Assembly (NCBI GenBank): GCA_012845835.1
Contig: JABAKD010000026.1
Location: forward strand, 10,096,199-10,160,198
Origin: Undaria pinnatifida
Lineage: Eukaryota; Sar; Phaeophyceae; Laminariales; Alariaceae
Length of the DNA stretch: 64,000 bases
Direction: 5' to 3'
The notes under the pieces are model-generated. The model worked only from the letters and a program-made list of their open reading frames with translations. It ran no database searches and was not told the origin of the DNA. The translations under genes and the position numbers were made by a program. This document shows positions 16,106 to 47,564 of this stretch, piece by piece (position 1 is the first letter of the stretch; each line of letters begins with the position of its first letter).

Positions 16106-17480
16106 CACAATTTTTTACGATACTTAGTCTATGCATTAGTCTATGCGAAAAAGGCGTACTTTCCTGACCGACAGTGACCACAGATCGTACAGCAGTCGGT
16201 GTTAGCGTCATCATAGGAGCCTGGAAATGACAGTGTGTGCCTCGCTGATGTAGCTTACCACTACGAGCGTATACCTTTTCCAGCATTAAAGCTTTGCGAC
16301 CGGCATGACTTCACCCACAGGTCGGCATAACCTGGCACAACCCGAGGCCTTGACATGGAGCTCGGAATGAGCACGACGGGGGACTACCCTATGTGCTGCA
16401 AAAGGCCGGTATTCATATCGACCCCTCTGGCTCGATCGGTAAAGGTATCAACAAAACATTACTCATGGAAAGCTAGAGCAGGAACGAGAGCCAGTTGCGC
16501 TTTTTACTCGCATAGAACTTATTGGGTTCAAAACGCGTACCTGAAATGTAACCCAGCTTCGATGGTGGTAGTAATGGCGCTTCTGTAGAGGAGCCGGACA
16601 CGCACACAGACTGCGGCCGATACACTCTCTGTTCTTCCAAGCTCTACTGTAACGGAGTCGCCAAACCAAAGAGGGAAAGAGGGGTTGACCTGGGAACGTT
16701 ATGCACTCTGGTGTATGCCTTTGAAGGAACGGGGACAAAACCAGGCAAAAGCAGTAAGATCGTAGGCTCGTGGTCGGACGGTGATTGGCCGAAACGCTTT
16801 TTGCACCATATGCTGCATTATTATTCGCCGTCGAAGGCAGATTGGCCCAAACACACGATTCCATTGCGGGTTGGTGCTGTTTTCTTGTAATATACAGTAT
16901 TAATATTTGTACACTCTGATCAAGCGCCGATACCTAAAAAAAAGCTAAAATATCTCGCCGCACGCGGGCGAAACAAAATGGGCCTAAGGCGTTCTACGAG
17001 GACCTACTGGGCAAAACATACAAGAGCACTGCACTCTTGCCACAGTCACAAACAAGTATCTTATTTGTTTAATTATAGATCTAGTGGGAATACTATATAT
17101 CGGGCATATCATTTGGATATTTCACGACTCCCTATACCGAAAACGACAGCTCTTTCTCCAGCTCTTGTGCACATCTTCCTGACCGCGGCGATAGACAGCT
17201 GTGGTAAAAGGCAACGTTTCTCCATCAGGCCGGATCGATCTGTTCTGATATTTTTACCACGAGAAAAATGCCTCGTAAAAAACACGACTCCCTATTGATA
17301 TCTATATGCCTTCGCCACCCGCACGTGAACAAATTTGAAAAATAATACTTCTCCCTTTCTGTACGGAGGCAATACTATAGACTATGTTAAGATACGGCTA
17401 CACTACCGATCTTGGTGCGGTTGAAATTGCCGTTACCTGTGAACACAGCAGTGATAGTGCAGCAATCAGCACTACCGTAG
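16106..17480. other. No recognisable gene
   Basis: Frames are at most about 130 codons and overlap on both strands, without domain signatures. An AT-rich stretch at 16,880-17,110 precedes the minisatellite region. I see no tRNA, terminal repeat or conserved motif. Confidence 0.4.
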
Positions 17481-17484
17481 GCGC

Positions 17485-19330
17485 GACCGTCCCCCTTTAG
17501 TGCGGTCGGGGGAAACTACCTTGTTTGGTGGGGTTATACTGCCTGTTTTTTATACGGTTGATGCGCGAACGTATACTGTCCTACTCCCCTACACTACTGT
17601 GGGGGCAGATGCTACCCGTTTATATACGGTTGGCTGCGCGATCCTTTACTGTGTTACCCCCCCCCCCCCCTACACTACTGTTGGGGCGGATGCTGCCCGT
17701 TTATTTTTTATACGGTTGGTGCGCGATCCTCTACTGTGCTGCCGCCCTACACTACACCTAGGGTAAATGCTGCCTGTTTTGGTGCGATGAGTGTCAGCGT
17801 GTTGAGCGACTCTTCACTATGCTTCCACCCCTACACTACACCTAGCTGCCTGTTTTGGTGCGACGAGTGTCAGCGTGTTGGGTGACCTTTGACTGTGCTC
17901 CCCCCCACCACCACACCTAGGTTGAATGCTACCCGTTTTGGTGCGATGAGTGTCAGCGTGTTGGGTGACCTTTCACTGTGCTCCCCCCCTACACTACACC
18001 CAGGTTAAATGCTGCTTGTTTTGGTGTGATGAGTGTCAGCGTGTTGGGCGACCCTTCACTGCACTTCCACCCCTGCACCACACCTAGGGTAAATGCTGCC
18101 CATTTTGGTGCGATGAGAGTCAGCGTGTTGAGCGACTCTTCATTATGCTTCCACCCCTACACCACACCTAGGTTAAATGCTGCCCATTTTGGTGCGATGA
18201 GTGTCAGCGTGTTGGACTGTGCTTCCCGCCTACACTACACCCAGCTTAAATGCTGCCTGTTTTGGTGCGATGAGTGCCAGCGTGTGGGACGATCTTACAC
18301 TGTGCTTCCACCCCTACACTACACCTAGTTTAAATGCTGCCTGTTTTGGTGCGATGAGTGTTAGCGTGTTGAGCGACCCTTCACTACGCTTCCACCCCTA
18401 CACCACACCTTGGTTAAATGCTGCCTGTTTTGGTGCGATGAGTGTCAGCGTGTTGAGCGACTCTTCATTATGCTTCCACCCCTACACTACACCTAGGTTA
18501 AATGCTGCCCGTTTTGGTGCGATGAGTGTCACCGTGTTGCGTAACCTTTCACTGTGCTTCCCCCCTACACTACACCTAGGTTAAATGCTGCCTGTTTTGG
18601 TGCGATGAGTGTCAGCGTGTTGGGCTATCCTTCACTGTGCTTCCACCCCTACACTACACCTAGGTTAAATGCTGCCTGTTTTGGTGCGATGAGTGTCAGC
18701 GTGTTGGGTGACCTTTCACTGTGCTACCCCCCTACACTACACCTAGGTTAAATGCTGCCTGTTTTATGGCGATGAGCGTCGGCGTGTTAGGCGACCCTTC
18801 ACTGTGCTACCCCCTACACTACACCTAGGTTAAACGCTGCCCGTTTTATGGCGATGAGCGTCGGCGTGTTGGGCGAACCTTTATTGTGATAACCCTTACA
18901 CTACACCTAGAGTAAATGCTGCCTGTTTTGGTGCGATGAGTGTCGGCGTGTTGGGCGACTCTTCACTGTGCTACCCCCCACGCTACACCTAGGTTAAACG
19001 CTGCCTGTTTTGGTGCGATGAGCGTCGGCGTGTTGGGCGAACCTTTATTGTGATAACCCTTACACTACACCTAGGGTAAATGCTGCCAGTTTTGGTCCGA
19101 TGAGCGTGGGCGTTTTGGGCGACGCTTTCCTGTGCTACCCCCCCCGCCTAGGTTGAATGATGCCGGTTCAAGTGCGATGGCTGCAGACGTACCTTTACTG
19201 TGTTGCACCCCCTGCACTGTGGTTAGGGTCAGTGCTGCCCAGTTTTGGCTGCTTTTACTGCGGTTCGTGCGGGCGTTACCCGTATACCCTACGGTCAGAC
19301 TGGGCTATGCTCTTATGTTGCGGGTTTGGT
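17485..19330. repeat. 82-84 bp minisatellite, about 20 units, with decayed edges
   Basis: The core unit contains CTACACTACACCTAGGTTAA, ATGCTGCCTGTTTTGGTGCG and ATGAGTGTCAGCGTGTTGGG in order. Homogeneous units run from about 17,745 to 19,100. The left edge (17,485-17,745) consists of older variants with CTACACTACTGTTGGGG and TACGGTTGGTGCGCGATCC, and the right edge (19,100-19,330) also decays. Homogenised centre and diverged edges are the usual mark of unequal exchange. Many units are 84 bp, a multiple of three, which keeps frames of 65-127 codons open; these are not taken as genes. Confidence 0.9.
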
Positions 19331-19578
19331 GGATGGTACCCTTCTAACTGCTGTATTCCTTTTTTACGGCTGGTTGGCGTGCTGCTACCATCACTGATGC
19401 TGGACGGAGTCGAGGCCCATGTCTTGCTGTTTGCTGAAACACAGATATATCGCTACTTACAGCAGGGACATCACAACAATATATCTGCCTCCATTGCTTC
19501 TTTCCCCGTCGTTCCCATCCCGCCACCTTCCCCCACACCCCTTCCTTCGGCTGCCCTCCATATAGACAACAAGCAACA

Positions 19579-20960
19579 TGTCTGCCAGTGAGGAAGCGGG
19601 CTACTCGGGGCAGGCTGAGGTCTTCCACGAACCCCAACCTGGATGCCCACGAGACAGGGAGAGCTCGCTCGAGATTTCGCGACTCGAGACGGGGGGAACC
19701 ACCGGAGGCGGGTTCCGGTGACGAGACAGAAGACGGAGCACCATACCTCCACCCGTTCCCATCAACCAAGCGGGTCGACTAGTTGGTTCGCGCTGAGAAG
19801 AAGACGGACCAACCCCCACCGGACTCGGGGGCGTCTCGACGCCAGCTCTCGCCAGCCCCGGGGGAGCGCCACCAGCTGCCTCCCCCGCGCTCGGCAGGGC
19901 ACCACCGCAGCGGGGGTGATAGCGCATCGGGTGCTGGTGTGCCTGAGGGCGCCGCCGAGGAGACAACTTCGGTCCAACAACCGGGGCAGTTATCCGCAGC
20001 TCTGGCAAAGGGATGGCGCGAGAGGACGTTCAGCGTGGGACGGCTCGTCAACCTCCTCCCGCTCGTATTCGTCCTCGAGCACGGACCACAGCAAGGTGGT
20101 CGTGGTAGCAGGCAAAAAGTGTCAAGAGCTATGGCAGGAGGAGCATCTAGGCTTGAGGCTTTCACCCTCCTGTTGCGTCTGCTGATCACGCACTTCGAAG
20201 GGGTTGACACGGCGGAGGGCTACACTAAGTTGCATACTTTTGGAATGTGTAACGGCATGCCTTTTTCTGATTTCAGTGGAGTTTCGCGTACTTATGATGA
20301 CCGCTACGCGGAATGAGCGTGTTTTATCTCCGGGGACGGATGTGGTGTTGGAGGTGGTTCGGGTGGCGGCGAATGAGGAAATTCAGGCTCTCCTGCCTGC
20401 GTTGTACCCTGGGTCGAAGGCAACAGATCCGCAGCCATACGCCTCGTTGGATGCTATGTGGCGAGCGTTTAGTGACTAATAAGACACCTGCCGTCAACGA
20501 CGAAACATTTTTTTCTCTCCCTGTTTCTTCGACGGGAGCGCGGTCATGCGCCCTGTCGGGGCCCCAGCCCGTCGATCATGGGCGCGGCCAGGGCCGAGTG
20601 CCGTCCCAGTCGCTTTCATGGCAGACGGGATCGAGCCATCATTCAACTGTCATGCCCATCGATGATTCATCTGACCCTTGGCTTGACCACACATCGAACT
20701 GCTGGCCACTAGAAGAGCATCATTATGCAGAAGGTTTCACCGTTAAGGCCTCGTTTAAGACAGACGACCCTCCTGTTTGGAGCGGCCTCCTTTCACCTTG
20801 CGCTGATGCCCTTCGAGAAAACCGGGGGCTTTGCCTCAACTGCCACAAAGACAACTATTCCTTCAAGCATTGTAGGCATCCTTTCATTACTGCGAGTGGC
20901 TGCTTGAACCCTGAACTTGGCCAACTTGGCGACGATGACGCACACCGACGTTGACAAACA
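19579..20960 (+). pseudogene. gag: gag of Element A, frameshifted
   Basis: The ATG at 19,579 follows an AACAAGCAAC context and opens a frame that stops at about 19,720. Capsid-like sequence then continues across three frames: (i) to about 20,316, ending in an ITHFEG..KLHTFGMCNG block; (ii) 20,300-20,479, with a VLSPGTDVVLEVVRVAANEE block; (iii) 20,480-20,954. The last piece contains a zinc knuckle at 20,832-20,873 of the form C-x2-C-x4-Y-x4-C, where the usual histidine is tyrosine. Gag would form the capsid and bind element RNA. At least two frameshifts and the altered knuckle make this copy non-functional. Confidence 0.65.
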
Positions 20961-22294
20961 CGCATGGTCTGCTACTGCCGAGACGAAAAATCTTCTCGCC
21001 CGAACAACCACAAGAAACATCGTCGCCATCTTTCTGGTCAATCGTCGCCATTTTTCTGGTCAATCGTCGCCATCTATCAGGATCAGGGCCAGACAGACTG
21101 TCACAACGATACCACATACACGTCGGATCACCATGGTGGTATCCTGCGCTCGCCCGCCTCTTCTGCCTCCGCTTCCGCTCTTCGAATGCGCTTTGGAGCC
21201 GCCCACAACCTGGTCAAAAAAACATTTGCCCGCCAACCTGGTACATTCCGTAACGGCAATCGACAGCTCGACGGCGGTACGGCACCGTCGATAACACTGT
21301 CGAGGGGTACCTCATTTGGTTTCAGAACATGCTCGTGTTCTGTTGCTAGCCTGTCCAGTATCGCAGCACAGACTGCCTCTGTCAAGAGCCCACGAGCTCC
21401 TACGCCGTCTGCGGACGATTCTCACGGCGTAGTACCGGCGGCGGGAACTAGCGCCTTAAGCGTGGTTTCCTCCAGCCAGGTAATTTTTTTCTTTTTTTTC
21501 TTTCTTTTTCGACGGCGAGAACGCGCGCTTTCAGCGACGTTCCCCTCGGTCATGGTCTGAGTTCGGCAACAGGAACCGTGCTTCCGGCGCCGTTTCCCTC
21601 AGCCGCGGCATAAACTCGGCAATTGGGGTACGCGCTCCAAATGCCGCCGCCATCAACCATGGCACGGAAGCCTGCGCTTTGCGCGCTCCCCCCCCAGGCA
21701 CGCGCCGCGCAACAATATAGCTGCGGCGACGGCGCGTCGCCTTTTCTCGCGTATGTGTTCATCCCCCCCTCTCCCTGACCAGGCGGTGGCGGTCGGTTTG
21801 AGGTGTGGGACGGTCGACCCTCGAAACACTTTTTCTGACCACGAGGTGGCGGTCGATTTGAGGTGTGGGAAGGCCAACACTAAAACACCGAGATCTTTTG
21901 CGAGGCTCGATCCGGTGTTTGCTCGCGATAACAGCGGGCGCTCTGCCCTTTTTTCCATCAAGGAGGAGTCGACAAGATTAGCTACCTCGTCTCCCTTCTC
22001 CAAAAGACATAACGGAGGAGAGCCTCCTCGGGTGAAAATAATATTGCCTTGCCCGAGCCCCGCTCCAGAAGACGCCCACAGTGTTTACCGACCATGCTTC
22101 GTTTTTTAACACGCTAACCCACGTGTTTCAAGCTACGTCTGCCCCAGTGGCACAGGAAGAAGATCCGACACTGCGCGACGGGCCAGTGGTGACTCCACGG
22201 CCTCCAGCCTGATCAGCTGTACGCTATTCCCGTAAACGTACAGAAGAATCGCGCCTCTCGTCAAGCAGAAACAGCTCAGAGCCCCTGCCCCTGC
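20961..22294 (+). other. Element A linker, gag tail or protease region, unrecognised
   Basis: Arg/Ser/Pro-rich frames follow the zinc knuckle, as in many Gypsy gag tails. A protease active-site motif (D-T/S-G) is not seen here. A two-unit duplication at about 21,768-21,890 shares GGTGGCGGTCG and TTTGAGGTGTGGGA. A poly-T-rich stretch lies at 21,484-21,510. The region probably held the gag C-terminus and protease, but I cannot assign them. Confidence 0.35.
21028..21092. repeat. 22-bp tandem repeat, three copies
   Basis: Three consecutive units start with CGTCGCCAT and continue as CTTTCTGGTCAAT, TTTTCTGGTCAAT and CTATCAGGATCAG. They lie in the gag-tail region of Element A. Because 22 is not a multiple of three, the array changes frame, which agrees with decay. 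Confidence 0.8.
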
Positions 22295-22885
22295 GGGCGC
22301 AGTTAGAGCAGTTTTCTTGCGATTATACGCCAAAAAGCGAAGAGACCACGACGCGAGAATCCGTGTTTTCGGACTCGCGTCGTGCTCCCGAGGCCTGGTG
22401 TTCCTGAGGGGGACCCTAAAGGCCCAAGTAGCCGAGGACTAGTGTTCCCAGACGGAGACATTGCAGACCCAAATGCCCAACGAGGCTACCGACGGGTTGG
22501 CACCGTCGGTGATGGACTCTTTTTCGGGTGCAATAAGGGCGGCTTCTTACGAGTTTCCGCCAGCGAGTGAGGAGGACCCGAGGCGAGCAACCCCAGGTTC
22601 GGACTCGCATGTTGCTCCCGAGGCCTGGTGCTCCCGCAAGGGGACATTACAGGCCCAAATAGCCGAGGACTGGTATTCCCAGAAAGGGACATTGCAGACC
22701 CACAAATGTCCAACGAGGCTACCGACGGGTTTGCACCGTCGGTTTTTGCCATTTTTCGGGTTGCAGTTAGAGCGTATTCTCGCGCTTTTCCGCCAACGAG
22801 CGAAGAAAGACCGGAGGCGAGATACCACGTGTTCGGATTCGCGTCGTGCTCCCGAGGCCTGGTGTTCCTGGACGGGGACATTGCA
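22295..22885. repeat. ~230-bp tandem repeat, about 2.4 copies, upstream of the NADAR domain
   Basis: The block CGTGCTCCCGAGGCCTGGTG (or close variants) recurs at about 22,380, 22,610 and 22,845, so the period is 228-235 bp. Each unit also has GACATTGCAGACCCA, a GAGGCTACCGACGGG block and a GCACCGTCGGT block. A partial unit precedes at 22,295. The reading frame of the NADAR ORF runs through the last full unit, so it contributes the poorly conserved N-terminal ~100 residues of that ORF. Confidence 0.8.
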
Positions 22886-23584
22886 GGCCCAAATTTCAAC
22901 ACGGGTTTTGACCCTTTTCTCGAATACTCCACAGCCAAAGTGGTGTTATTCTGGCAGCCCCCATCCTATTTTCCACCGCGGTCCCCTTCGTCGTTTGCCG
23001 TGGAAGACGTACCATATTCTTGCGCGGAGCAGGACATGATGGCCGAAAAGACCAAGTGTTTGCGAGACCATCGAGCAGTGGGGCTCATTATGTCGTCGCC
23101 TCATCCAAGCACACGCAAACGCATCTGTCGAGGCGTGCACAACTTTGAATGCGCTGTTGGGGACAGGGAGAAGCAAAACGCCGTGTCACCTGGCATCTAC
23201 GCCAAATTTACGCAGAACCCAGCCATGAAAAATCACCTTTTGAGCTCGGACAACAAGCTTCTCGCTGAATCCAGCCCTCTGAACCCAGTGTGGGGCATTG
23301 GTCTCCGGGCGGATGGTCCCAGGGCCAACAACCCATGCCAGGGGGGAGGAAAAACTTGCTCGGTGAGGCACTTTCTGCCGTTCGCGCAGCTATTTACGAC
23401 AATGAGACCGGGTCGGCGCACCCGGCCTCCCCTAGTCGGTTCCGCACCTGCACTGCGAGTGCAAGAACCAAGAAATCTCGTCCGCGCCGCAACCGGACCG
23501 TTCAGAGCGGCCAGCGCTCGCAAAGCTTCCCCTTCGGCGTTTCTGACCTATTTCTCGGGCGCGTTGGCCAATGAAAAGCCGTGA
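22628..23584 (+). CDS. NADAR (YbiA/DUF1768) domain protein inside Element A, 3' frameshifted
   Basis: The 318-codon frame has a repeat-derived N-terminus (residues 1-100) and a NADAR domain from about residue 108 to 240. Visible family signatures are a C-A-E-Q motif with the catalytic-type glutamate at residue 134 (codon 23,027-23,029), followed by MMAEK; a central AKFTQNPAM block; and the tryptophan of VWGIGLRADGP at residue 222 (codon 23,291-23,293). The domain's expected last block, KNLLGEAL-VR-like, is found in the next frame from about 23,350. A one-base slip in the G-run at 23,341-23,346 therefore truncates the domain. Known NADAR proteins cleave N-glycosidic bonds: YbiA acts on riboflavin-pathway intermediates, and DarT1-linked relatives remove ADP-ribose from guanine. 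A role against host ADP-ribosylation is inference. The start codon is uncertain because the ATG lies in repeat sequence. Confidence 0.8.
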   Translation: MLPQGDITGPNSRGLVFPERDIADPQMSNEATDGFAPSVFAIFRVAVRAYSRAFPPTSEERPEARYHVFGFASCSRGLVFLDGDIAGPNFNTGFDPFLEYSTAKVVLFWQPPSYFPPRSPSSFAVEDVPYSCAEQDMMAEKTKCLRDHRAVGLIMSSPHPSTRKRICRGVHNFECAVGDREKQNAVSPGIYAKFTQNPAMKNHLLSSDNKLLAESSPLNPVWGIGLRADGPRANNPCQGGGKTCSVRHFLPFAQLFTTMRPGRRTRPPLVGSAPALRVQEPRNLVRAATGPFRAASARKASPSAFLTYFSGALANEKP

Positions 23585-23770
23585 AGTTGTGGAGATAGCT
23601 TCTAGCGTCGGCCCTGACCTTGCGATGTCAGAACACTGCCCCTGTTTCGTCGAGGGTACTGTGACGCTGGAGGACGCTTTTTTCACTATGAAAATCGCGC
23701 ATATCAATCGAGCAACGCTCGACTCGGAGAGGCACTGGACTCCTATTGATTTGGGGACCGGCAGCATTGC

Positions 23771-25810
23771 TTGGGTTCCCAAACGCCTCCGAGGATACTG
23801 AGGGAACAAAGTACCGCATATCCTCCGGCCACAAGACATAGGAGGGCATTGGCAAAGTGGGGACCCTTAAGGCACGAGTCCAGTGGTAGCTTGAGTTCGT
23901 CACCGCGCTCAATTGCACACTCGAGTACCGCAAAGGCAGCGCCAACGGCATCGCCGATTTTCCCGGCCCGTTTTCCAGAGCCCGTTACGGAGTACAACCG
24001 TAGCGGCCTGAGAAACTTCAACCTCGTAGGGTTGACAAGCCCCAACCCCGTTGGAGTTAGCGGTATCTGCCTCCTACGGACCCGCGGGCTGCGCGCTCCC
24101 TCCTCGCCGATCCCAGGAGTCGGTTCGGGTGGACTCGCGCCCCTCGCCAAAAGCACTGTCTTGGGTGGGCTCGTACCCCACACCGAAAGCACTGCTTTGG
24201 GTGGACTCGAACCCCTCGCCAAAAGCACTGTTTTGGGTGGGCTCGTGCCCCGCACTGAATATGCTGCCTTGGGTGGGCTCCCTCTCACCTCTACCGCGTT
24301 TCACGATTTTCGCACACACGAGCCACGTATAAGGATTGACGGCCTTCCAGTTTCCCCGGGGAGATTCGTCGCTCGTGTTTCTGCCTCCGTCGCCACTACC
24401 GAAGGCTGTACCGGCCGCGGGTCGATTTCACCTGCCGCCGACACTATTTTCGCTTCGGTTTTTGCCGTACCCATCGAGGGCGGCACGGGCTCCGCAGAAG
24501 CCCTGGCTGCAGCGACGCCCATCGCACAGCCGACTTATCTATCCCGGAGTTCTTTACAGGAGACGGCCCCCGCCGCGACCACCGGTTCAACTGTGCCCGT
24601 CTCCGCCATGCTTGGCACTCCAGCCCCTCCGTCGTCGACGACGCGCCGACAAACAGCGACAACAACGGGCAATGCACCTCCGCTGAAGATTATGGATTCG
24701 GGTCCGGCGGGGCCCCTCAGTCATCTTGCGGACGAAGTACAACCCCGTCGCGAGTTCCACGGCCGCAGCCGACCCCGTCGCCACCGCGACCCCTGCTCTT
24801 GTCGACTCGCCGGTCCGCACGGTGCCACTAATTTCCGACCGCGACCACGCAGAGCCTATATGGGAACTTCTCTCTTACAGCTCACGCCTTCTCCTGGTGG
24901 CACGCCGATCGCATATGCAAGGGCGGACGCCCTTCGCAACGCTGCTGAATTGCGTTTCGCTGACTCCGTCGCGCGTTATTCACATGGCGATTGGAAGCGA
25001 GAGCAGCACGCTGAGCCAACGTGCCACGCCATGATGCGTTACGTTTCTATCGGCCGGCCATTGGTCCTGCCGCCCGACGTTTTGGCGTGCTACCTCTCGC
25101 ACAAGCGTCCCTCCTTCTCAGACATCCAGGAGCTGGCGGGTAAGGGTCGACTACATACAACCCACGACGACATCGTCCTACTCGTCCGTAACACGACACT
25201 CGCGCCAACAAGCTCTGACAAACCAAACTTTGTGGGGCGAGCTGCTTGCTTGCCAAACGACGAGCCAGTTCGCATCTACGTTCCCCTGCTCATGCGCCCT
25301 TGGATCATGCAAGCTTGTCACTCGACGGCCTCCTGCCACCTTGGTACCACGCGCACGTTGCGCATGCTGGAGCGTTTTTATTGGTGGATTGGCATGCGTG
25401 TGTGCACCCGGTGGTGGCTTCGCCACTGCTTGAAGTGCCAAGCGAAGAAAACCCCACCGCTGACTGTCCGCTGGCCCGTCATCACAATGCCTCTGCCGGA
25501 AGGTCCAGGTATCGCCGTCAGTGTTGACTACTTCGGCCCCCTTCCGGTCACACCACGAGGAAACACCTACATCCTGCTGTTCACCGATCGCTTCAGTCGT
25601 CGGGCCGACATGTTCCCCGTCATTGCCGCTGAGTTCACCGCGGAGGGTACAGCCAATATCCTGGTGAACCAATACATCCCCTTGTGGGGGTGCCCGCGCA
25701 CCATACTCTCGGACAACGAACTGCAGTTCTGCTCCAAGCTTTCACAAGCTGTATATCAGCTGTTTTGGTGTACACAAGCTTGCTACAAGCTCCTACCATC
25801 CCAACTGTAA
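23771..25810 (+). CDS. Element A integrase, N-terminal part, frame broken
   Basis: This 679-codon frame begins in sequence that belongs to other frames (RNase H remnant), passes 12-residue repeats and a Ser/Pro/Arg-rich linker, then enters a Ty3/Gypsy integrase. Visible are an H-H-C-C zinc finger with histidines in ACHSTASCHLG (from about 25,309) and C-x2-C at 25,428-25,439. The first catalytic aspartate is in SVDYFGPLP (codon 25,526-25,528) and the second in LSDNELQF (codon 25,712-25,714). The frame is lost shortly after, at a T-run near 25,762; the third catalytic residue is in the next ORF. Integrase would insert the cDNA copy into the nucleus. The first ATG is unlikely to be a true start. 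Confidence 0.75.
   Translation: MGSQTPPRILREQSTAYPPATRHRRALAKWGPLRHESSGSLSSSPRSIAHSSTAKAAPTASPIFPARFPEPVTEYNRSGLRNFNLVGLTSPNPVGVSGICLLRTRGLRAPSSPIPGVGSGGLAPLAKSTVLGGLVPHTESTALGGLEPLAKSTVLGGLVPRTEYAALGGLPLTSTAFHDFRTHEPRIRIDGLPVSPGRFVARVSASVATTEGCTGRGSISPAADTIFASVFAVPIEGGTGSAEALAAATPIAQPTYLSRSSLQETAPAATTGSTVPVSAMLGTPAPPSSTTRRQTATTTGNAPPLKIMDSGPAGPLSHLADEVQPRREFHGRSRPRRHRDPCSCRLAGPHGATNFRPRPRRAYMGTSLLQLTPSPGGTPIAYARADALRNAAELRFADSVARYSHGDWKREQHAEPTCHAMMRYVSIGRPLVLPPDVLACYLSHKRPSFSDIQELAGKGRLHTTHDDIVLLVRNTTLAPTSSDKPNFVGRAACLPNDEPVRIYVPLLMRPWIMQACHSTASCHLGTTRTLRMLERFYWWIGMRVCTRWWLRHCLKCQAKKTPPLTVRWPVITMPLPEGPGIAVSVDYFGPLPVTPRGNTYILLFTDRFSRRADMFPVIAAEFTAEGTANILVNQYIPLWGCPRTILSDNELQFCSKLSQAVYQLFWCTQACYKLLPSQL
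23850..23975 (+). pseudogene. RNase H C-terminal remnant of Element A
   Basis: In a frame different from the integrase ORF, this segment reads a typical Gypsy RNase H tail: LEFVTALNCTLEYRKGSANG then IADF, corresponding to the family's L-x-x-Y/F-x-x-x-v-x-Y-R-x-G-x-x-N-x-x-A-D pattern. An in-frame TAG interrupts just before LEFVT. The reverse transcriptase palm and the RNase H catalytic start are missing upstream; about 400 bp between the NADAR domain and here is not recognised. Confidence 0.6.
24120..24290. repeat. 36-bp (12-codon) tandem repeat in the Element A pol ORF
   Basis: About four units of 36 bp, each with TTGGGTGGGCTC or TTGGGTGGACTC and a CCAAAAGCACTG or CCGAAAGCACTG block. In frame they encode a 12-residue repeat of the type S-T-x-L-G-G-L-x-P-x-x-x. 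Two sub-types alternate, suggesting duplication of a pair. The relative at 54,960-58,920 has a different 20-residue repeat in a comparable part of the element. Confidence 0.8.
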
Positions 25811-27182
25811 CGGGGGCGTTGAGCGGGTAAATCACACTATGGCACAAATGCTGGCTATGGTCGTCAACGAGCGACAAGGCGACTGGGACTTGCTTCTGCC
25901 CCACGTAGAATTCGCTTACAACAGCTCTGTCAGCGCGGCAACGGGTTCGGCGCCCAACAAGGTCCACATGGGCAGACTCCCACGGCTCCCCTTGACGATT
26001 TCAGATCGCACAGGTGTCGTGGGACACCAGAGTCTGGCCCGTGACCACCTGGCCTATTGCGATTTGGTTACCGACCAGAAAAAGCGCGCGAACGACATTG
26101 TCCGCGCACACCACGCCCTCAACGTTTCCCGTGTTAACCGCAGAAACTTCGCCTTCGCCGACGCGCTGCGTCCAGCACCTAACTTCACTGTGGGTGGTTG
26201 GGCATGGGTATACAATTCTGCCTCTACCATCCGCCAGGGTGTGAAGGCGAATACCGACGCCAAGGTACTCAAGGCCAAACTCGCGCTTAACTGGACGGGC
26301 CCATACAAGGTCCTGGCCGTCGGTCCCTGCTCCCCCGCCGAAACCCCGGACGGCTCGCTGCTCGGGAGCAACCTCCTTTATTTTGATCTCCCTTCCGACC
26401 TGCCTGGTTCGGACGCTCGTCGGGGTGAGGCCATCGAACGCTGCAAACCTTGTGCCAACCCCCACGACAGCAGGGACATGCCCAAACACCTACCGGCGGG
26501 GCTGACACAGTATGTGCTCAACAAATTTTCCAAGAATTCCCCGCCGTACCACGTCACTCAAGACGACGTTTCGACTCCCCTCCAACGGCTGGAGGTGGAG
26601 CAGATCACTGGTCATCAGTCGGTACGGGGGCGAGGTGGCGTCATCGCGGTGCTATACAAGACGCATTGTGCGGGACTCTCCGAACCGTCCTGGGAGAGGG
26701 AAATGGACCTTCACCTCTCCCGCACCCACATCTTGCGTTATTGGGCCGGAACCCTGGACCAGCACCGCCAAACCAACCGCCTTTACCGCCGAATGCGGAT
26801 CGGGGCGGCACAGCGTGAGCTCTCCCGCAACAACGGGGAACGTTTCCTAGCGCCGGGCTACGCCTGTCTTCCCCGCAACGATTGGCTCCGTCGCTACCAC
26901 GACACATTACTCCCTAAGGGAGCCCACGTTTGGTACAAGGGGGACGATGGTTTATGGTGGCTAGGAAAAATCAGCGCGAGTACTACCGAGGACAAGGTAT
27001 ACCTGGTGCGCTTTCTGGACGACCCGGGACCGATTAAACTCCCTCTTCCCCCGGCGCGCTACACGACTTGGACGGGAGCCGTACGAGGCTCTTGGTGCTT
27101 GCAAGTTCACATCGCCAGTGCGTTTCCTCGGGGAATCCAACGTAACGTAGACGAATCTCGAGGCGCCGCCGTGGCCAGTTGA
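25811..27182 (+). pseudogene. Element A integrase C-terminus with chromodomain and Tudor-like module
   Basis: The catalytic glutamate is in GGVERVNHT (codon 25,821-25,823), upstream of the first ATG at 25,839. It is 109 nt from the second aspartate, one base more than the 108 of a D,D(35)E core, so a single-base insertion split the gene. From the ATG, residues 151-164 (NWTGPYKVLAVGPC) are a GPY/F-type module. Residues ~250-302 resemble a chromodomain (start RLEVEQITGH, end near THILRYW). Residues ~361-412 resemble a Tudor/Agenet barrel (VWYKGDDGLWWLGKI, then VRFLDDPG). The last ~35 residues are basic. Chromodomains are known to direct chromoviral integrases to modified histones; the extra Tudor-like module is an inference from the sequence pattern. 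Confidence 0.75.
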
Positions 27183-27189
27183 CTTCCAA

Positions 27190-28310
27190 GCCACCACCGC
27201 TTCTCGATAGTTCTTCATTTGTTTGAGGTATGAGTTTTGCGCATTTATTTGTCTTTGGGTCGTTCGTAGTGTCCTGAGGGTTTTCATCGAGTTTTGGGGC
27301 GGTTCTTTCCATTTTTTTTTCCTGTCATGCCGAACCCCCTGCTCAGTGCCGGGTCAGGGTTCGGGTAAAACGCCGCTATCTGAGTCGCAGGGCTGTCGCC
27401 TTTTTGTCATTGTTCAATTTCGCCCTGCCGACGCCCTCCTCAGCCCAGAGCCGGGGGGCGACTAGTGTACGGGTCTGTGTGTCTTCTTTTATGTTTTGTG
27501 TGTTGTATTTGTTCTGCTTTGTTTTTTTTTCGTCTAAACACTTCCTCCCCTAGCGGGGCTGTAGGTGTTGACACCTTCCACCCCGGGTATTCGTCGTTTC
27601 CTCGTCTAACCCCCCGCCTTGCCGATGGCCCGCGGGAGGTTTTTCGCATGACTTCTCCCTTGTGTTAGCGCCTGTGTCCCCCTCCATATCGACGAGGGCT
27701 CGTCTCGCCATAGTACCTTTTCAGTGGTTGGTTTACCGTAGGGCCTTTCCCGCCCCCCCCCCACACCGGCGGCATGCGGCAGGTTCTAGAGCCTTTTCTC
27801 CCCCCCCCGCCACACCGGCGGCATGCGGCAGGTTTTTGATGGGTGACTATTGCCTTGCTGTAGGGTCTGCTTTTCTTTCTACTGCTTTTCTTCCCGTGTT
27901 CCTGGCTCCATAGCCAGACGGTTAGAGGTGTGGGAGTGGGGTTTGAGGAGCCGCATCTTCGACTCATGGTCTAGTTCGTAGAACCGGAGTTACCCCGAAT
28001 CTCCCATATTTCTGCATATGAGACTCATCAGGATGGGCTAGTGTTAAGATACGGCCTCGAAAGGCCTGTAGGTATCCGAATTTGAGATCATTTGGATGGG
28101 TTTCGTATGATAAGGTTGGCGGTTTATATTCGGGGAAGTTAGGAATTAGATCGGAGGCACGCGCCTCCGATCTCAGAAGCTATCCCGGGCTCTGGTGGAA
28201 ACGAATAATGGTATATCTCTACGAAGGAACGAAAGTGAGTACTCTCCGAGGACCTGCTTAATTGGCAGACCTGCAGGGGGCACTCTGTGTCCCCCACCTC
28301 TAATTTAACA
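27190..28310 (+). repeat. Element A 3' LTR-like segment
   Basis: This segment begins after the integrase stop and aligns along its length, inverted, with 29,574-30,645. Shared blocks include TGGGGCGGTTC, CGCCCTGCCGACGCCCTCCT, CTCATGGTCTAGTTCGTA and CACTCTGTGTCC. The proposed end is TTTAACA at 28,310. It carries the hairpin GATCGGAGGC-ACGC-GCCTCCGATC split over 28,149-28,172 and a second small palindrome at about 28,053. No 5' partner is found upstream of Element A, so LTR identity rests on position and on the inverted relative; a long 3' UTR is the alternative. Confidence 0.6.
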
Positions 28311-29573: not shown

Positions 29574-30645
29574 TGTGATTGAGTGAGGACACAGAGTGTC
29601 TCCTGCACGTCTGCCTATTGGGCAGGTCCTCGTCAAGTTCTCACTTCCTTAACCTTAGTAGAGACGTAGCTTTAATTGTTTCCATCAGAGCCCTGGATAT
29701 CATCTGACAGATCGAGGCGCAGCCTCGTATTTCCTGGTTGTCGCAAACAGAAAGCGTTAACCTACCGTACGAAAACGACCAATTATTTACTAAACCAGGT
29801 AATTACAGGCCTTCGAAGGCCATACCTTAGCACTACTGTAGCCCACTGTAATGAGCCGCATATCCAGAAACACGGGAGATTAGGGGGAACCCCGGTTGTA
29901 CGAACTAGACCATGAGTTTAAGATGGGCTTCTGAAAATCCACTCCCACATGTTTAAGGGCCTTGCTATGAAGCCAGGAGAACGCGAAGAAAACCAGGTGA
30001 AAAAAACGCATACCCTTCAACAGCGCAAGCCACACATCAAAACCCTGCCGAGTACCGCTGGTATGGCGGGAGGGGGGACAGAAAACGCTCTACGGCAAGC
30101 AAACCAATTGCGGCAAACAAACCTCAGAACAAGGCACTATGGCAAGGCACACCCTCGTGGAAACGAAGGGGAACACAGACGTTAAAACAAGGGTGAAATC
30201 AAGCCGAAAACCTCTCGCGGGCCCCGCAAGCATTTTTGGAGGGGAGATGAGGAAATGAACATAGCCGCAATGGAAGGTGACGTCACCTACAGCCCCGTGA
30301 GAGGAAGAAGTGCTTATTGTTTAGCCAAAAAGTAGAGCGTATACAACACACAAAATGTAAGAGACACAGTCCCGTATAACCCTGTTCCACTGTACGCGCG
30401 AACACGATACCCTGGCCGCCACCCGGCTCTGGGCTCAGGAGGGCGTCGGCAGGGCGAATTTGAAATTGAACCAGAAAAAAACGATAGTCCTGTGCCCCAG
30501 ATAGCGACCTGAATACCCAGACCTCTTGGCCGATACTGAGCGGGGGGGTCGGCAGTAATAACAAAACAATGTCAGAACCGCCCCACATCCCGTCAAAACA
30601 ATAAAACAACCAGAACAAACAATCCAAGGACTAGAATTCCAACTC
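29574..30645 (-). repeat. LTR-like segment of the inverted Element A relative
   Basis: On the minus strand it matches 27,290-28,310. Its proposed terminal dinucleotide lies at 29,574-29,575 (TG on the plus strand, CA on the minus). The hairpin at 29,714-29,728 (CGAGGC-GCA-GCCTCG on the plus strand) occupies the same place as the hairpin at 28,149-28,172 with different stem bases. Overall divergence from the other copy is high, so they are separate old insertions rather than two LTRs of one element. Confidence 0.6.
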
Positions 30646-31349
30646 ACAAAGGGTCGGTCTTAACAGTACGTACTGCACTTAAGTCTGTGATGAAATTTCG
30701 AGCACTTTACAGAAATCTGTGAAGGTTGAATGTTCACGAGTACGAGCCTCAGTTGACTTGCAATTTAATCATCCTCACGGCATAGAACCGGCACTATAGC
30801 AGCAACGCTCGCGGAAGACACCCATGTAGTAGTCCCCCTGGGGTCGGTCTTACGCGTAGGCGCGTGTCGGTGCTTTAGGGAGCAAAATCCATCCCCAACT
30901 CGTCGCGCCACCACGGTCAACGTGACAAACGTCTCAGCTATTGCCGTCAGCGAGCTTGTTCGGTCGGCCGCCTCGGTGCGGTCACTTTGTCAACTCGACA
31001 ACGAGAGCTCAAATGCTAACTGCGTCTTCTGCAATCAGCTTCAGCTGTCAATGACCTTGGGAACGACGCTGTTCAGTTGCTTGCGCCCGAGAGTGGTAGC
31101 ACAGCTCGAGGGGTGCCGCTGCCCAATCCTCAACACCCATGTACCTAAATTTGAGTTTTCTCCCTAAGCAAATGAAAAAAGTAACGGCCAGTTTTTCCGG
31201 GGTAAACATGTTAGGTTTTTCTCGAAAAAAAAAAAACAAATGGGGGAAAACAAATGTTTCGGAAAAAGCGAAATAATATAAATTCGTTAGGCACGACCCT
31301 ATTACATAGAAAAAAAGAAAAAAAAAACTATCGAGGAACGGTGGCGGCT

Positions 31350-32120
31350 TGAAAGTCAACCAGCCACAGCCGCGCTCCGATATTCATCTACTACGCTACG
31401 TTTTGGATACCCGCGGGGAGGCGTTGTCGACGTAAATTCGAAAATATCATGAGCCTTGTACGGTCCCCGTCGAAAGTCTAGCGCGCCGAAGGGAAAAGAA
31501 GTACAGTCTACCCAGCCTCCGGTCGACCGAAAATCGAACCAGATATGCCCCGCATTCAGTCGTAGTCGCGCTAATTGGTCCATGTCACTGCAACCCATCA
31601 TCTCCCTGGTACCAAATTTGAGCTCCCTTAGGAAGCACCGTGTCGTGGTAGCGACGGAGAGCGAATCGGCGCGGGGAGCACAAGCGTAGCCCGGCGCTAG
31701 AAAATATTGTCGCGGGAGAGCTTGCGCTGTGCCGCCCCGATTCGCATTCGGCGGTACAGACGATTGGTGTGGCGGTGCTGGTCCGGAGTGCCGGCCCAAT
31801 AACGCAACAGGTGGGAAAGAAAGAGGTGGTAGTCTATTTTAAGTTTTCAGGGCGGTTCAGACAGCCCAAGAAAATGTGTCTTGTATAGCCTATAACCGAG
31901 ATGACGCCACCGCGGGTCACAGACGTGTGGTCGTCGTTTGTTTTTAGGTGGTCTTTTTTTGTCAGCTCGCGGGTGTCCGAAAATAATGTGCGAAATGTAA
32001 CTGTTACGGCGGCGGTATGGCGTGGACATAAATATGCGGTGGGTCATTTTCATGGTGTTATGGGCTTTGCTTGAACTAGGCGCAGAACAAGAACGGGTTG
32101 CCGTTTTGTCTTGTCCGTGA
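31350..32120 (-). pseudogene. Decayed integrase C-terminus (chromodomain and tail)
   Basis: Minus-strand frames at 31,847-32,149 and 31,356-31,799 match the C-terminal third of the Element A integrase. YRLYKTHFLGLSEP corresponds to the chromodomain core, FLAPGYACAPRADSL to the post-chromodomain segment, and a final VVDEYRSAAVAG to the last residues. The two frames differ, so at least one frameshift lies between them. The Tudor-like part is heavily diverged. Confidence 0.65.
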
Positions 32121-35337: not shown

Positions 35338-36472
35338 ATTTTAACAACACACCACGAAGCTATAACACAATGTATACCTCACCTAAAAATTGTTTTGTAT
35401 ACCACACCTAACATCAAGTCTGCTAGGATAACATACAATACCAGGCAGGTGATAAAAACTGATGCATCCCTTCTACAACCGTCAGATTTGTCCCCTCAAA
35501 GTATTTACAGCTTCCGCGCATATATTGAGTTGTCCCGCCCCCCCCACCCGCCCCGTTCCCCCAATCTCTCTTGTCCAAACGCCCCACCTGCAAAACAAAT
35601 TCTGCCAGAGTAATAAACACTCATTATATTTCTATCCGTCCATGATGTAGTTCCAACTCGTTTCCGACCCCCGCCCCTCCCGCCTTTCCCCCGCTCCCTC
35701 TTGTTCAAACGCCCCACCTAAAATCAAATCTGCCAAGAAGAATACACACTATCAGGCAGTTGATATCACGTCACTATGTTTCTAGCCCTCCATGCCGTAG
35801 CTCCAATTCACCCCGCCGCAACCCCCCTCCTTCTCCACCACTCGCACCATCGCCTAGACCAAGCAACATGCGTATAGCAAGCCCCTGCATCTATACAACC
35901 TAACGCTGTTGAAACCCTTTTCCCCCAACCCCCCCCCCCCCCCCGGAACCCCCCCGACCCCTTCGAATACCCCGCCCTCTCGTCACTGGTTGTACGACCT
36001 ACAGGATGATATACATGATAAACTGATGACGCATTCTTTCCACGACCGTCAGATTTGGCTCATGCATTAATTTCTAGCACAGATTGAGTTGCCCCCCCCC
36101 CCCCCCCCCCCCCTCCCCCGCTCTCTGTTGTCCAAACCCAGGCCCCCACGTCCGAAAAAAATCCACCCTCTCCTCACCGGTTATATGACTTACAGGATAC
36201 GCTTGATAAGCTGATGCATTTTCTTCCACAGCTGTGAAATTCTGTCCCCCTCAAAATAGGGCTTTATAGTTTCCGCGCACAGACTGACTTGCATCACCCT
36301 GTTGACCCTGATAGCTACACTGTGGTTCCAAGGGGAGTCGACCACCTATAACCCTAATGAGGATCCAGACCCAGTAATATAAACGATCGGAGTATCACAC
36401 ACAGCTTGAAAACATGAGTTTCGACAAAGTCTTCGATCTCACAGCTGGAGGGTATGTATACACGAAGTATAT
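35338..36472 (-). repeat. GR repeat, copy e (minus), left arm of a large palindrome
   Basis: Read on the plus strand, modules appear in reverse with poly-C tracts in place of poly-G (about 35,530, 35,925, 36,092) and end at 36,412-36,455 with GATCTCACAGCTGGAGG, the inverse of the GR terminal motif. The modules GACAAATCTGAC, TTTATAGTTTCCGCGCACA and GTTGATATCACG are present in the expected order. It is head-to-head with copy c, whose terminal motif begins about 40 bp to the right. Confidence 0.7.
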
Positions 36473-36477
36473 CATAA

Positions 36478-38050
36478 AAATTAAAATAAAATACACTCCA
36501 GCTGTGAGATCAAATATTTTGTCGAAACTCGTCTTTGCAAGCTGTGTGTGATACTCCGATCGCGCGTATCACGGGTTGTGTGTCCTCATTAAGGATATAG
36601 GTCGGCGACTCCCCTTGCAACTACAGTGTAGATGCCAGGGTCAACAGGGTGATGTTAGGCAGCCTGTGCGCGGAAGCTACAAAACCTCTTTCTGAGGGGG
36701 ACAAAATCTGACAGCTGTGGAAGGAAATGCATCAGTTTATCAAGTGGATACTGTAAGTCGAATATCCGGTGAGGGGAGGGCGGAGTTTTTAAGGACGTGG
36801 GGGCCTGATTTTGATCAAAAGGGGGGGCGGGAGGGGGGGGAAGGGTGGAAGGGCACGGGTGGGGCAGGTCTATTTGTGCGTGGAAACTATAAATATTTCT
36901 TGTGGGGGAGGGGGAATGTGGCGGGGGGGGCCCGGGGGCGGGGGGGGAGGGCTTCAGGTCGCATAGATGTAGGGGTTGGGTATACGCGGGGTGCTAGGTC
37001 TAGGCGATGTTGCGGGGGTTCGGTGAAGAAGGGGGCGTTGGGGACGGGGGTGGGTGGGAATTGCAGCAGCGGCATGGACGGCTCTGAAACGATAACGTGG
37101 CGATATCCAGGGCGTGGAAGTGTTTATTACTCTGGCGGATTTCGATAGTAGGTGGAGCGTTTATGCAGGAGGAAACGATGGGAACAAAAAAAAATAAAAG
37201 GCGGGGGAGGGCGGGGGGGGGGGGGGGGGGGGTTCGAGAGGTTTAGGTCACATATAATATTAAAATCAAGGATTTGGTCAACACTGCTGATGTTCGCAAC
37301 ATTGTGTGTAATCTTCCGATCGCGCGTATTTATCATATATGTAGGGGCCTACGATACGCGCGGTGCTGGGTCTAGGCGATTGGCGGGGTATGGAGAAGGA
37401 GGGGGCGTTGGAGGGGGGGAGGGGGGACGAATGAAAGCTACGTCATGGATGGCTAGAAAGATAATGACGTGATATCAATGGCTTATTACTGTTTATTACT
37501 CTGGCCGAATTCGATAGTAAGTGGGGCGTTTGAACGAACTGGGCGGGGAACAGAGGGAGGGGGGGGGGATGAGTTGGAGCTACGGCATGGAATGTAAGAT
37601 GGATAATAAGATGATATCAGCTGGCTGGTAGTGTTTACTACTTTGCCAGATTTTGATTTCAGGTGGTGCGTTTAAAGGAGAGGGATCGGGGGGGGGGGGC
37701 GAGCATTTCAATATGTGCGCGGAAACTATAAACCCTTGAAGGGGACGAATCTGACGGTTGCAGCAAGAAGACACCCCATTAAATCACCCGCCTCGTAATG
37801 TTTATTTTTCTAGAAGGTTTGATGTTACATGTAGTATGCAACCCAGTTCTTAGGTGTAGTAAACAACGTGTTGAAATCTTCATAATGTGTTATTGTACAT
37901 GGATCGAAGGATAGAATACTTCAATCGATAGGTACAATCATGTAGATACCATTGGTTTCTGACATAGCTAATTTTAAGATGCATATCGCCAAATACAACA
38001 GGCGAGGTGATGGTCATGCAATGTCACCGCCATTGAGAACGACAGGGAGA
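36478..38050 (+). repeat. GR repeat, copy c (plus), right arm of a large palindrome
   Basis: Begins ATAAAATACACTCCAGCTG, continues through the full set of GR modules (GTGCGCGGAAGC near 36,664, GTGCGTGGAAACTATAAA near 36,876, GTGCGCGGAAACTATAAA near 37,713) and has a diverged second terminal motif at about 37,255-37,330. The distal end at 37,740-38,050 matches that of copy a and, inverted, copy g, ending near GCCATTGAGAACGACAGGGAG. It is one of the most complete GR copies in the window. Confidence 0.7.
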
Positions 38051-39215: not shown

Positions 39216-39279
39216 TCTGTCTTAGAATTGGCGACCTTAGAGCCCCACATCGACACGATGAAAACGATGGGCGTAAAAT

Positions 39280-39697
39280 CGTGCATGAGCTATTAATAAC
39301 AATAATGTGAGAAGGAAGTACAGGCAGATAATTTAAATGTGCGGTAGACCACACTACCAACATATTAACGTCTGCATAATCGCCTCCCAACCTATGTCAA
39401 ACGAAGTATGACTAACGAAGTAACGTCATTGAACGTGGGAACACCAAGCGTTTCTTTCAACACACTGTTGATTCGCACATCACCCCCTCGTGCATGAGCT
39501 ATTAATAACAATAATGTGAGAAGGAAGTACAGGAAGATAATTTAAATGTGCGGTAGACCACACTACCAACATATTAACGTCTGCATAATTGCCTCCCAAC
39601 CTATGTCAAACGAAGTATGACTAACGAAGTAACGTCATTGAGCGTGGGAACACCAAGCGTTTCTTTCAACACACTGTTGATTCGCCCATCACCCCCT
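39280..39697. repeat. 209-bp tandem duplication, two nearly identical units
   Basis: Units 39,280-39,488 and 39,489-39,697 both start CGTGCATGAGCTATTAATAA, except that the sequence after the second unit switches to CGTGCTCAATGG. They differ at only about four positions, so the duplication is recent compared with the heavily diverged GR copies around it. The flanking blocks TTGGCGA..AGAGCCCCACA at 39,228 and 39,773 also match, hinting that a larger old duplication encloses it. Confidence 0.9.
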
Positions 39698-41630: not shown

Positions 41631-42149
41631 CTAATCGATCTTCGGCCAACGTCTTCTCCCTTTCTCCATCGGACTCCATTTCACGTTCCTCGTATACGGG
41701 GAACCGGATTGCGAATTTCCGGTCCTCCAACCTTTCAGGATTTCACATTCGTTGAGCTCCTCCCAATCTCCGTCTGCGTACCGAACCCGCCAGTACGGTA
41801 ACTTGTAGTCGAAGACCTTTGAAAGGTGACGCTTCTTTTTTCCTTCAGCGTCCGCGAATTCCCTCCAGATCACGGTCCTCACGGGGTGTTGTTTATACGC
41901 TTGTCCGCGGTCGATCCCATCTCTTTCCTTCCGCGTTAGGGTCGAAGTTGGTCTTACCCGGCACTCCGCTCTGTGATACATTTCCCACAGCGCATGGAAA
42001 ACATCCAACTGTAAAGGGGTGAAACTGTCTCGTGCCTCCTCTTCGGACAGCCACTGCGACTCTGTGCCATCCACGAACCGTCCCTTGTACCGCCACTTCC
42101 TAGCGTTGCCTTGACTCATCGCAGCCTTTCTGTCTATTAGGGTATACAT
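41631..42149 (-). CDS. Element B 3' ORF with Tudor-like module
   Basis: A 172-codon frame directly after the integrase in another frame. The N-terminal half (RKWRYKGRFVDG to about residue 60) is charged and aromatic. The C-terminal half contains a compact beta-rich stretch, VFDYKLPYWRVRYADGDWEE then LNECEI, that looks like a Tudor/Agenet-type barrel strand pattern. The last residues are basic. Such modules bind methylated histone tails, so a targeting role like that of integrase chromodomains is plausible but inferred. It may be reached as part of the pol polyprotein by a frameshift, or be a separate product. Confidence 0.55.
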   Translation of the reverse strand: MYTLIDRKAAMSQGNARKWRYKGRFVDGTESQWLSEEEARDSFTPLQLDVFHALWEMYHRAECRVRPTSTLTRKERDGIDRGQAYKQHPVRTVIWREFADAEGKKKRHLSKVFDYKLPYWRVRYADGDWEELNECEILKGWRTGNSQSGSPYTRNVKWSPMEKGRRRWPKID

Positions 42150-42157
42150 AGGCGACG

Positions 42158-43615: not shown

Positions 43616-43627
43616 TCCTCCAACGGA

Positions 43628-45790: not shown

Positions 45791-45794
45791 GGTT

Positions 45795-47560: not shown

Positions 47561-47564
47561 TCCC

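What the first reader, a model, noticed from the sequence alone, without database searches (positions are those of the whole stretch)
22628..23584. NADAR (ADP-ribose-linked N-glycosidase) domain carried by a chromoviral-type Gypsy retrotransposon
Seen: an ORF between gag and the RNase H/integrase of Element A with the NADAR signatures C-A-E-Q, AKFTQNPAM, W-G-x-G-L and a KNLLGEAL-like end. Known: YbiA/NADAR proteins cleave N-glycosidic bonds, and relatives linked to DarT1 remove ADP-ribose from guanine. Inference: the element may have acquired NADAR to reverse host ADP-ribosylation of its nucleic acids or to act on NAD-derived signals. That would make it an accessory counter-defence gene in a eukaryotic retroelement.
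Basis: partly seen in the sequence, partly recalled or inferred. Interest (0 to 1): 0.88.

Follow-up and report, generated by a model that had tools for sequence, protein, structure and literature searches.

The report
Retrotransposon carrying a dead NADAR enzyme
The window holds a decayed copy, without reverse transcriptase, of a jumping element whose intact relatives in the same large genome, probably a brown alga's, carry a NADAR enzyme of the kind that removes ADP-ribose; such elements were reported from Ectocarpus in 2025, and new here are signs that the enzyme is kept by selection and that damaged copies spread without a working version of their own.

Summary
The NADAR domain is real (PF08719, E 7e-24, window 22952-23344) and lies inside a Gypsy element. 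It is no one-off: 150 matches were scored, of 1454 candidates, in the window's own 511-Mb genome, several in open frames of 2371-2473 aa. Two families read in pieces, one copy each, have NADAR, RT, RNase H, integrase and a weak chromodomain; three of six copies examined have identical or nearly identical terminal repeats. Both families keep the ADP-ribose-binding and catalytic residues and show an excess of synonymous change. The kind is already published: Dinatale et al. 2025 describe NADAR in Pol of one Ectocarpus Gypsy lineage. The window copy is damaged: no 5' end, protease or RT found, Trp-to-Gly at an ADP-ribose contact, C-terminus out of frame. All 12 further copies read share the Gly codon and the deletion; the frame slip was confirmed in 9, unscored in 3. 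From about 25.2 kb to the 3' LTR it is about 94-98% like family A, elsewhere mostly 62-85%, so it is a recombinant, most simply mobilised in trans. A counter-defence role is possible but untested. Host species and origin of the domain are unresolved.

The parts
17398..28310 (+). Gypsy copy ('Element A') without a detected 5' end and with internal deletions; member of a NADAR-lesioned subfamily
   Evidence: Collinear with family A pieces L009/L004/L010; 5' LTR and first part of the element not found in the window
17559..19248 (+). 82-84 bp tandem array that is part of the element's 5' region, also present in family A
20301..20954 (+). Gag remnant with a zinc-knuckle-like motif (20832-20873) whose His position reads Tyr
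   Evidence: motif search; no Pfam hit
22299..22894 (+). about 230-bp unit repeated just upstream of NADAR
22571..23584 (+). ORF with the NADAR domain; domain match 22952-23344
   Evidence: E 7.1e-24; Foldseek match to 8bau E 5.3e-06, TM-score 0.46 by target, rmsd 14
23159..23161 (+). Gly codon at the position of Trp89 of the Phytophthora NADAR (pyrophosphate contact)
23345..23584 (+). out-of-frame C-terminal tail in place of the last part of NADAR
   Evidence: model confidence under 50 in residues 238-253 and 255-261
23688..23694 (+). junction of a deletion of about 2.09 kb (protease motif, RT, first part of RNase H)
23694..23912 (+). RNase H remnant, not in one open frame
   Evidence: alignment to L010, RNase H position there
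25100..25200 (+). recombination boundary: 72-85% like family A in the 1.4 kb below it, mostly 94-98% above it
25283..25753 (+). integrase zinc-binding domain (25283-25453) and integrase core (25505-25753)
25668..27182 (+). rest of Pol: integrase C-terminal part and a putative chromodomain / Tudor-like tail
   Evidence: Tudor_2 E 0.028 in the window, Chromo E 0.055 in the family A copy, both below cut-off; no hit for the whole ORF at E 0.01
28042..28310 (+). 3' LTR, 95% identical to the 267-bp LTR of the family A copy

Best explanation
The window copy is a non-autonomous recombinant derivative of a NADAR-bearing Gypsy lineage. In families A and B, which look autonomous, NADAR sits in the N-terminal part of Pol, ahead of the protease motif. 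There it most likely works as a particle-borne ADP-ribosylhydrolase that takes ADP-ribose off guanine bases of the element's RNA or cDNA (shown: domain, place, conserved active-site residues, excess of synonymous change; inferred: activity, substrate, packaging). The window's subfamily lost protease and RT and carries a lesioned NADAR. It spread as a parasite of family A and recombined with it (shown: shared lesions in the copies read, many copies, mosaic; inferred: trans mobilisation and template switching). NADAR activity is therefore not needed from the copied RNA itself; if it is needed at all, the helper supplies it.
For: NADAR and Pol domains in pieces of one copy each of families A and B. 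LTRs 267/267 identical in the C30 copy, 99.6% over 274 bp in the C18 copy, 92-bp identical terminal repeats in the C25 (family B) copy. Residues equivalent to E43, K50, W89, E125 kept in 38, 40, 39 and 39 of 41 family A rows and 21, 22, 22 and 24 of 24 family B rows (rows chosen by high NADAR score); roles of the residues from PMC11543638 section 12. dN/dS 0.15 between L004 (family A) and the related row L079, 0.29 between L014 (B) and L083. pN/pS within family A 0.33 (27 rows) and within B 0.43 (11 rows), against 1.18 and 2.31, and 1.37 and 0.91, in the other two frames. NADARs tested in print remove ADP-ribose from guanosine in DNA and RNA (passages). Gly codon and deletion junction shared by 12 of 12 further copies read; frame slip in 9 of 12, 3 unscored, against 0 of 3 family A copies. 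Mosaic in the window and in 7 of 8 further copies, with two boundary classes.
Against: No activity was measured. The intact NADARs were picked by score, so they favour intact copies. L079 and L083, used for dN/dS, have changes of their own at contact positions (W133 to Arg; G78 to Glu). pN/pS in the lesioned subfamily is 0.56 (0.50 without the window; other frames 1.07 and 0.68), not clearly neutral. Position D86 is not kept (mostly A/T/S in family A, Q in B). NADARs outside DarT1 operons are described as inefficient in rescue tests (passages). The lesioned subfamily's success could also mean that NADAR is dispensable altogether. In three of the six copies examined no LTR pair was found.
Confidence: 0.6

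Rival explanations
1. NADAR serves small-molecule or RNA-processing chemistry (NAD-derived signals or by-products of RNA processing) rather than removal of ADP-ribose from the element's nucleic acids.
For: Proposed for viral NADARs (passages of PMC9503650) and as RNA processing for the Ectocarpus elements (passages of PMC12477816); the elements have the YbiA-type glutamate, not the DarT1-type aspartate.
Against: The NADARs tested in the two cited papers cleave ADP-ribosyl-guanosine (passages); no substrate evidence either way here.
Confidence: 0.3
2. NADAR is a passenger domain, folded but with no catalytic role (structure or RNA binding).
For: A lesioned subfamily amplified to at least 40 close copies; NADAR differs more between families A and B (48.7% identity) than RT does (80.6%).
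Against: Catalytic residues kept in both families and synonymous excess; the protease region is just as diverged (50.4%).
Confidence: 0.2
3. The window NADAR is a chance insertion of a host gene into one Gypsy copy.
For: This genome's own stand-alone NADAR gene could not be examined (search not answered).
Against: Many copies; NADAR at the same place in Pol in the family A and B copies read; the same arrangement reported in Ectocarpus.
Confidence: 0.01
4. The mosaic arose by gene conversion between integrated copies, not by template switching during reverse transcription in shared particles.
For: Both leave the same trace; only 8 further copies were read at the boundary.
Against: The lesioned subfamily lacks RT in the copies read, so it needs a helper in any case, which makes co-packaging the simpler source (inference).
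Confidence: 0.25

Closest known systems
Gypsy-12_Ec32 and its lineage, Ectocarpus (Dinatale et al. 2025, PMC12477816; abstract, outline and passages seen)
   Different: Other genome; here two families with strongly diverged NADARs and an RT-less, NADAR-lesioned subfamily; sequences not compared directly, the Ectocarpus element not being at hand
Tx1 LINEs of Crassostrea gigas with NADAR in ORF1 (as described in passages of PMC12477816)
   Same: NADAR taken up by a retroelement
   Different: Non-LTR element, other protein and place
Stand-alone NADARs of brown algae (Pylaiella, Scytosiphon, Ectocarpus proteins P0055, P0062, P0066, P0092)
   Same: Same domain; family A falls in one starred set with them and five database proteins in one tree
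   Different: Short proteins of 227-252 aa without Pol domains; they and the element rows form separate clades
Phytophthora nicotianae NADAR (PDB 8bau) and E. coli YbiA (PDB 2b3w)
   Same: Sequence and fold matches; catalytic and ADP-ribose contacts align
   Different: Cellular enzymes; the window copy lacks the Trp89 equivalent and the in-frame C-terminus

Membership tests
NADAR (PF08719, YbiA type) | Match above Pfam's curated cut-off | tested here: met
   Window 85.3 bits, L004 176.9, L014 172 against 35.1
NADAR (PF08719, YbiA type) | YbiA-type glutamate at position 125 plus E43 and K50 | tested here: met
   Present in the window ORF and in 38-40 of 41 family A and 21-24 of 24 family B rows
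NADAR (PF08719, YbiA type) | Complete domain in one frame in the window copy | tested here: not met
   C-terminus in another frame, Trp89 position is Gly
NADAR (PF08719, YbiA type) | Hydrolysis of ADP-ribosyl-guanosine | not testable with these tools
   needs a bench assay
Ty3/Gypsy LTR retrotransposon (families A and B) | RT and RNase H ahead of integrase, with LTRs | tested here: met
   Family A copy: LTRs TG...CA. Family B copy: domain order; its 92-bp repeats begin TGTAATAG but do not end in CA
Ty3/Gypsy LTR retrotransposon (window copy) | Own RT and both LTRs | tested here: not met
   RT deleted; only a 3' LTR of this copy found
Chromovirus | RT phylogeny within chromoviruses and a clear chromodomain | tested here: inconclusive
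   Chromodomain below cut-off; no RT tree made; C-terminal model unusable (mean pLDDT 30.7)
NADAR-Gypsy lineage of brown algae (Gypsy-12_Ec32) | NADAR in the N-terminal part of Pol | tested here: met
   Family A and B copies
NADAR-Gypsy lineage of brown algae (Gypsy-12_Ec32) | C-terminal chromodomain | tested here: inconclusive
   Chromo E 0.055 and 0.097, below Pfam's cut-off
NADAR-Gypsy lineage of brown algae (Gypsy-12_Ec32) | Common descent with the Ectocarpus lineage by RT tree | not tested
   Ectocarpus element sequence not at hand

The most novel reading that the evidence does not exclude
The element-borne NADAR is a counter-defence enzyme that reverses guanine ADP-ribosylation of retroelement RNA or cDNA by a host transferase. 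It was captured more than once, evolves fast, and is shared as a common good that RT-less, NADAR-dead parasites exploit through co-packaging.
Probability: 0.17. Interest if true: 0.85.

Novelty: new member of a known kind. Interest (0 to 1): 0.52.

Why it matters
The physiological role of NADARs found across eukaryotes is described as unclear in PMC11125620 (passage). Retrotransposons that keep one, next to a subfamily that has lost it, give a natural comparison: they tie NADAR to a nucleic-acid life cycle outside toxin-antitoxin operons and raise the question whether the enzyme works in trans.

Tried and rejected
Chance similarity: rejected by E-value and copy number. One-off host gene insertion: rejected. 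A gene-calling accident behind the shared out-of-frame end: made unlikely by the DNA of further copies (9 of 12 out of frame, 3 not scored by the motif test, 3 of 3 family A copies in frame; the site has the same length in all 12). Chromodomain by structure: model useless. NADAR-bearing proteins of about 594-1888 aa in the protein database with the read-through query: none of 149 candidates scored. Close kin of the window NADAR in viral contigs: none matched. With an alignment query, 68 viral contigs encode NADARs, listed identity 42-56% to the query's first sequence; I tried 23 of the 68 in a tree, dropped one for a stop inside, and the 22 did not group with the element rows. Single versus repeated acquisition: in two trees with genome rows, family A and the B/L083 rows do not group together, but one clade is not rejected (AU p 0.48; 0.18); open. 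A tree of the database rows (24 of 83 element rows, window included, had the full core) puts them in one clade, but it holds no family B row. The patterns that sorted C-terminal frames left 39 of 83 rows unscored. LTR pairs were looked for in six copies: found in three (C30:12062898, C18, C25), not in three (C30:20109847, C29, C35). Host species: not named by any tool; 511 Mb resembles the Undaria assembly, which I recall and for which I saw only a search listing. Not answered: a count of copies with the deletion junction, and a search for the host's own NADAR gene.

Full report
Observation. The ORF at 22571-23584 (+) carries a NADAR domain (PF08719, E 7.1e-24, window 22952-23344) and the integrase domains follow at 25283-25753. 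Upstream lies a zinc-knuckle-like motif that I read as Gag. By sequence the only solved structure listed is the Phytophthora nicotianae NADAR 8bau (E 1.2e-05). A model of the window ORF has mean pLDDT 90-94 in residues 141-190, falls to about 45 in residues 241-260, and matches 8bau (E 5.3e-06, TM-score 0.46 by target, rmsd 14) and E. coli YbiA 2b3w (8.3e-04) in a fold search.

Already in print. Dinatale et al. 2025 (PMC12477816; [quoted passage not shown] They also mention NADAR in Tx1 LINEs of Crassostrea, suggest acquisition by horizontal transfer because blastp gave almost only bacterial hits, and suggest processing of RNA intermediates. My literature searches were 'NADAR + retrotransposon' (20 of 104 papers listed), 'NADAR + brown alga' (10 of 80), 'DUF1768 + transpos' (2 of 2) and 'YbiA + retro' (6 of 6); by its title only this paper looked pertinent among those listed.

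The genome. The window is C33:10096199-10160198 of a 511,146,479-base genome in 68 contigs. That it is a brown alga is an inference: the named stand-alone NADARs nearest to it are from Pylaiella, Scytosiphon and Ectocarpus, and the element type is known from Ectocarpus. Some unnamed database contigs may come from the same or a near species: the NADAR core of database protein P0018 is almost that of genome copy L082. The species is not identified.

Copies. The NADAR family search listed 150 scored matches of 1454 candidates, all over the cut-off; the tool calls such counts lower bounds. The family A copy at C30:12062898 (L004) lies in a frame of 2473 aa that opens about 407 residues before NADAR, with a protease-like DTG motif after it, then RT and RNase H, integrase, and a weak chromodomain. 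Its LTRs are 267 bp, TG...CA, identical at both ends; the copy spans about 15.46 kb. In the C18 copy the LTRs are 99.6% identical over 274 bp. The family B copy on C25 (L013-L015) has 92-bp identical terminal repeats, a 2371-aa frame and the same domain order. No LTR pair was found for three other copies (C30:20109847, C29, C35). In the family A copies L004, L005 and L006 one in-frame TGA stands before the Pol frame, and in L004's copy the Gag knuckle lies in that frame; in the family B copy Gag and Pol frames differ.

Divergence and selection. Between one family A and one family B copy identity is 80.6% in RT, 75.7% in RNase H, 69.2% in integrase, but 48.7% in NADAR, 50.4% in the protease region and 30.1% in the stretch before NADAR. 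So NADAR changes faster than RT, about as fast as the protease region. Synonymous change still exceeds amino-acid change: dN/dS 0.15 between L004 (A) and L079, 0.29 between L014 (B) and L083; A against B pN 0.374 and pS 0.772, saturated. L079 and L083 are single rows with changes of their own at contact positions. Within families pN/pS is 0.33 (A, 27 rows) and 0.43 (B, 11 rows); control frames give 1.18 and 2.31, and 1.37 and 0.91. These rows are those of equal length without stops among copies chosen for high NADAR scores.

Active site. Residue roles come from the Phytophthora NADAR paper (PMC11543638, section 12 read), mapped through alignments to 8bau. In 67 fetched rows, family A (41) keeps E43 in 38, K50 in 40, W89 in 39, E125 in 39, W133 in 40; family B (24) keeps them in 21, 22, 22, 24 and 23. 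D86 is not kept. The window ORF keeps E43, K50, E125 and W133, but has Cys at 78 and Gly at 89.

The window copy and its subfamily. Against family A the window element is collinear from 17398 to 28310; the 5' LTR and first part were not found, there is a gap in the Gag region, and a deletion of about 2.09 kb removes the protease motif, RT and the first part of RNase H. In the database set, 49 of 83 element rows (window included) sort with the window's group; 38 of the 43 that have the column show Gly at 89, and 19 of the 20 whose C-terminal frame could be scored are out of frame; in the sister group of 31, 24 of 30 keep Trp and 20 of 24 scored are in frame. In the genome, 40 of 861 candidates were scored as copies of the window's NADAR stretch, 94-100% identical, the window itself included. 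I read 12 of the other 39: all 12 have the Gly codon and the same deletion junction. The frame of the WGIGLRAD part differs from that of the LLGEAL part in the window and in 9 of the 12; 3 could not be scored because a motif is changed; in 3 of 3 family A copies tested the two parts share a frame. Several of the 12 carry further frame breaks of their own. pN/pS in this subfamily is 0.56 (0.50 without the window; other frames 1.07 and 0.68), weaker constraint than in A but not plainly neutral.

Mosaic. Sliding comparison with family A gives 62-85% from 19.2 to 25.2 kb (one short bin 90%) and 94-98% from 25.2 to 28.2 kb, the last short bin 90%. Of 8 further copies read at the boundary, 7 show the step, at two places (near 24.9-25.0 kb in three, near 25.1-25.2 kb in four); one leaves homology near 25.15 kb. 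The LTR is 95% like family A's. The simplest account is recombination with family A in shared particles, hence mobilisation in trans; gene conversion is not excluded.

Origin of the domain. Element rows of the first database search form one clade (100/99), but no family B row was in that set. With genome rows, family A, family B with L083, and the brown algal stand-alone proteins form three clades; one origin of all element rows is not rejected (AU p 0.48, 0.18), nor is a joint clade with the brown algal proteins (0.46, 0.35). In the last tree family A falls in a starred set of 15 rows with brown algal stand-alone NADARs and five database proteins, apart from 22 rows of viral contigs. So neither the bacterial origin suggested in print nor an algal one is settled.

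Function. NADARs tested in print cleave ADP-ribose from guanosine in DNA and RNA (passages of PMC11125620 and PMC11833690); viral NADARs have been proposed to act on ADP-ribosylated macromolecules or soluble derivatives (passages of PMC9503650). I take the element enzyme to be an active hydrolase in families A and B, acting in the particle on RNA or cDNA; that is inference. Counter-defence is one use of such an activity and has no direct support here.

Noticed in passing
window 41634-48033 (-): A second Gypsy-like element with RNase H, integrase and a weak Tudor match (E 0.0012, below cut-off), reminiscent of the Tudor-bearing Gypsy-10_Ec32 described in PMC12477816; 33-37% identical to families A and B in RNase H.
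   Followed up: partly
window 29583-31914 (-): 3' end of a related element in the opposite orientation (Pol C-terminus 73%, following stretch 69%, LTR 73%), tail to tail with Element A.
   Followed up: partly
window 54923-56222 (-): Remnant of another related integrase region (66% in DNA); no second NADAR showed in a peptide comparison of the element region with the window at E 1e-3.
   Followed up: partly
L004:277-279 and L014:463, 582: In family A copies an in-frame TGA stands between Gag and Pol; in the family B copy Gag and Pol frames differ, so the way Pol is expressed may differ between families.
   Followed up: partly
window 36093-36853 and 38-52 kb: Inverted repeat with 363-nt arms (82% complementary) and several related direct and inverted repeats, perhaps a DNA transposon family.
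   Followed up: no
window 39279-39696: 209-bp tandem duplication, 98% identical.
   Followed up: no
L108-L175 (viral contigs): 68 NADAR-coding loci in IMG/VR contigs, some over 500 kb long.
   Followed up: partly
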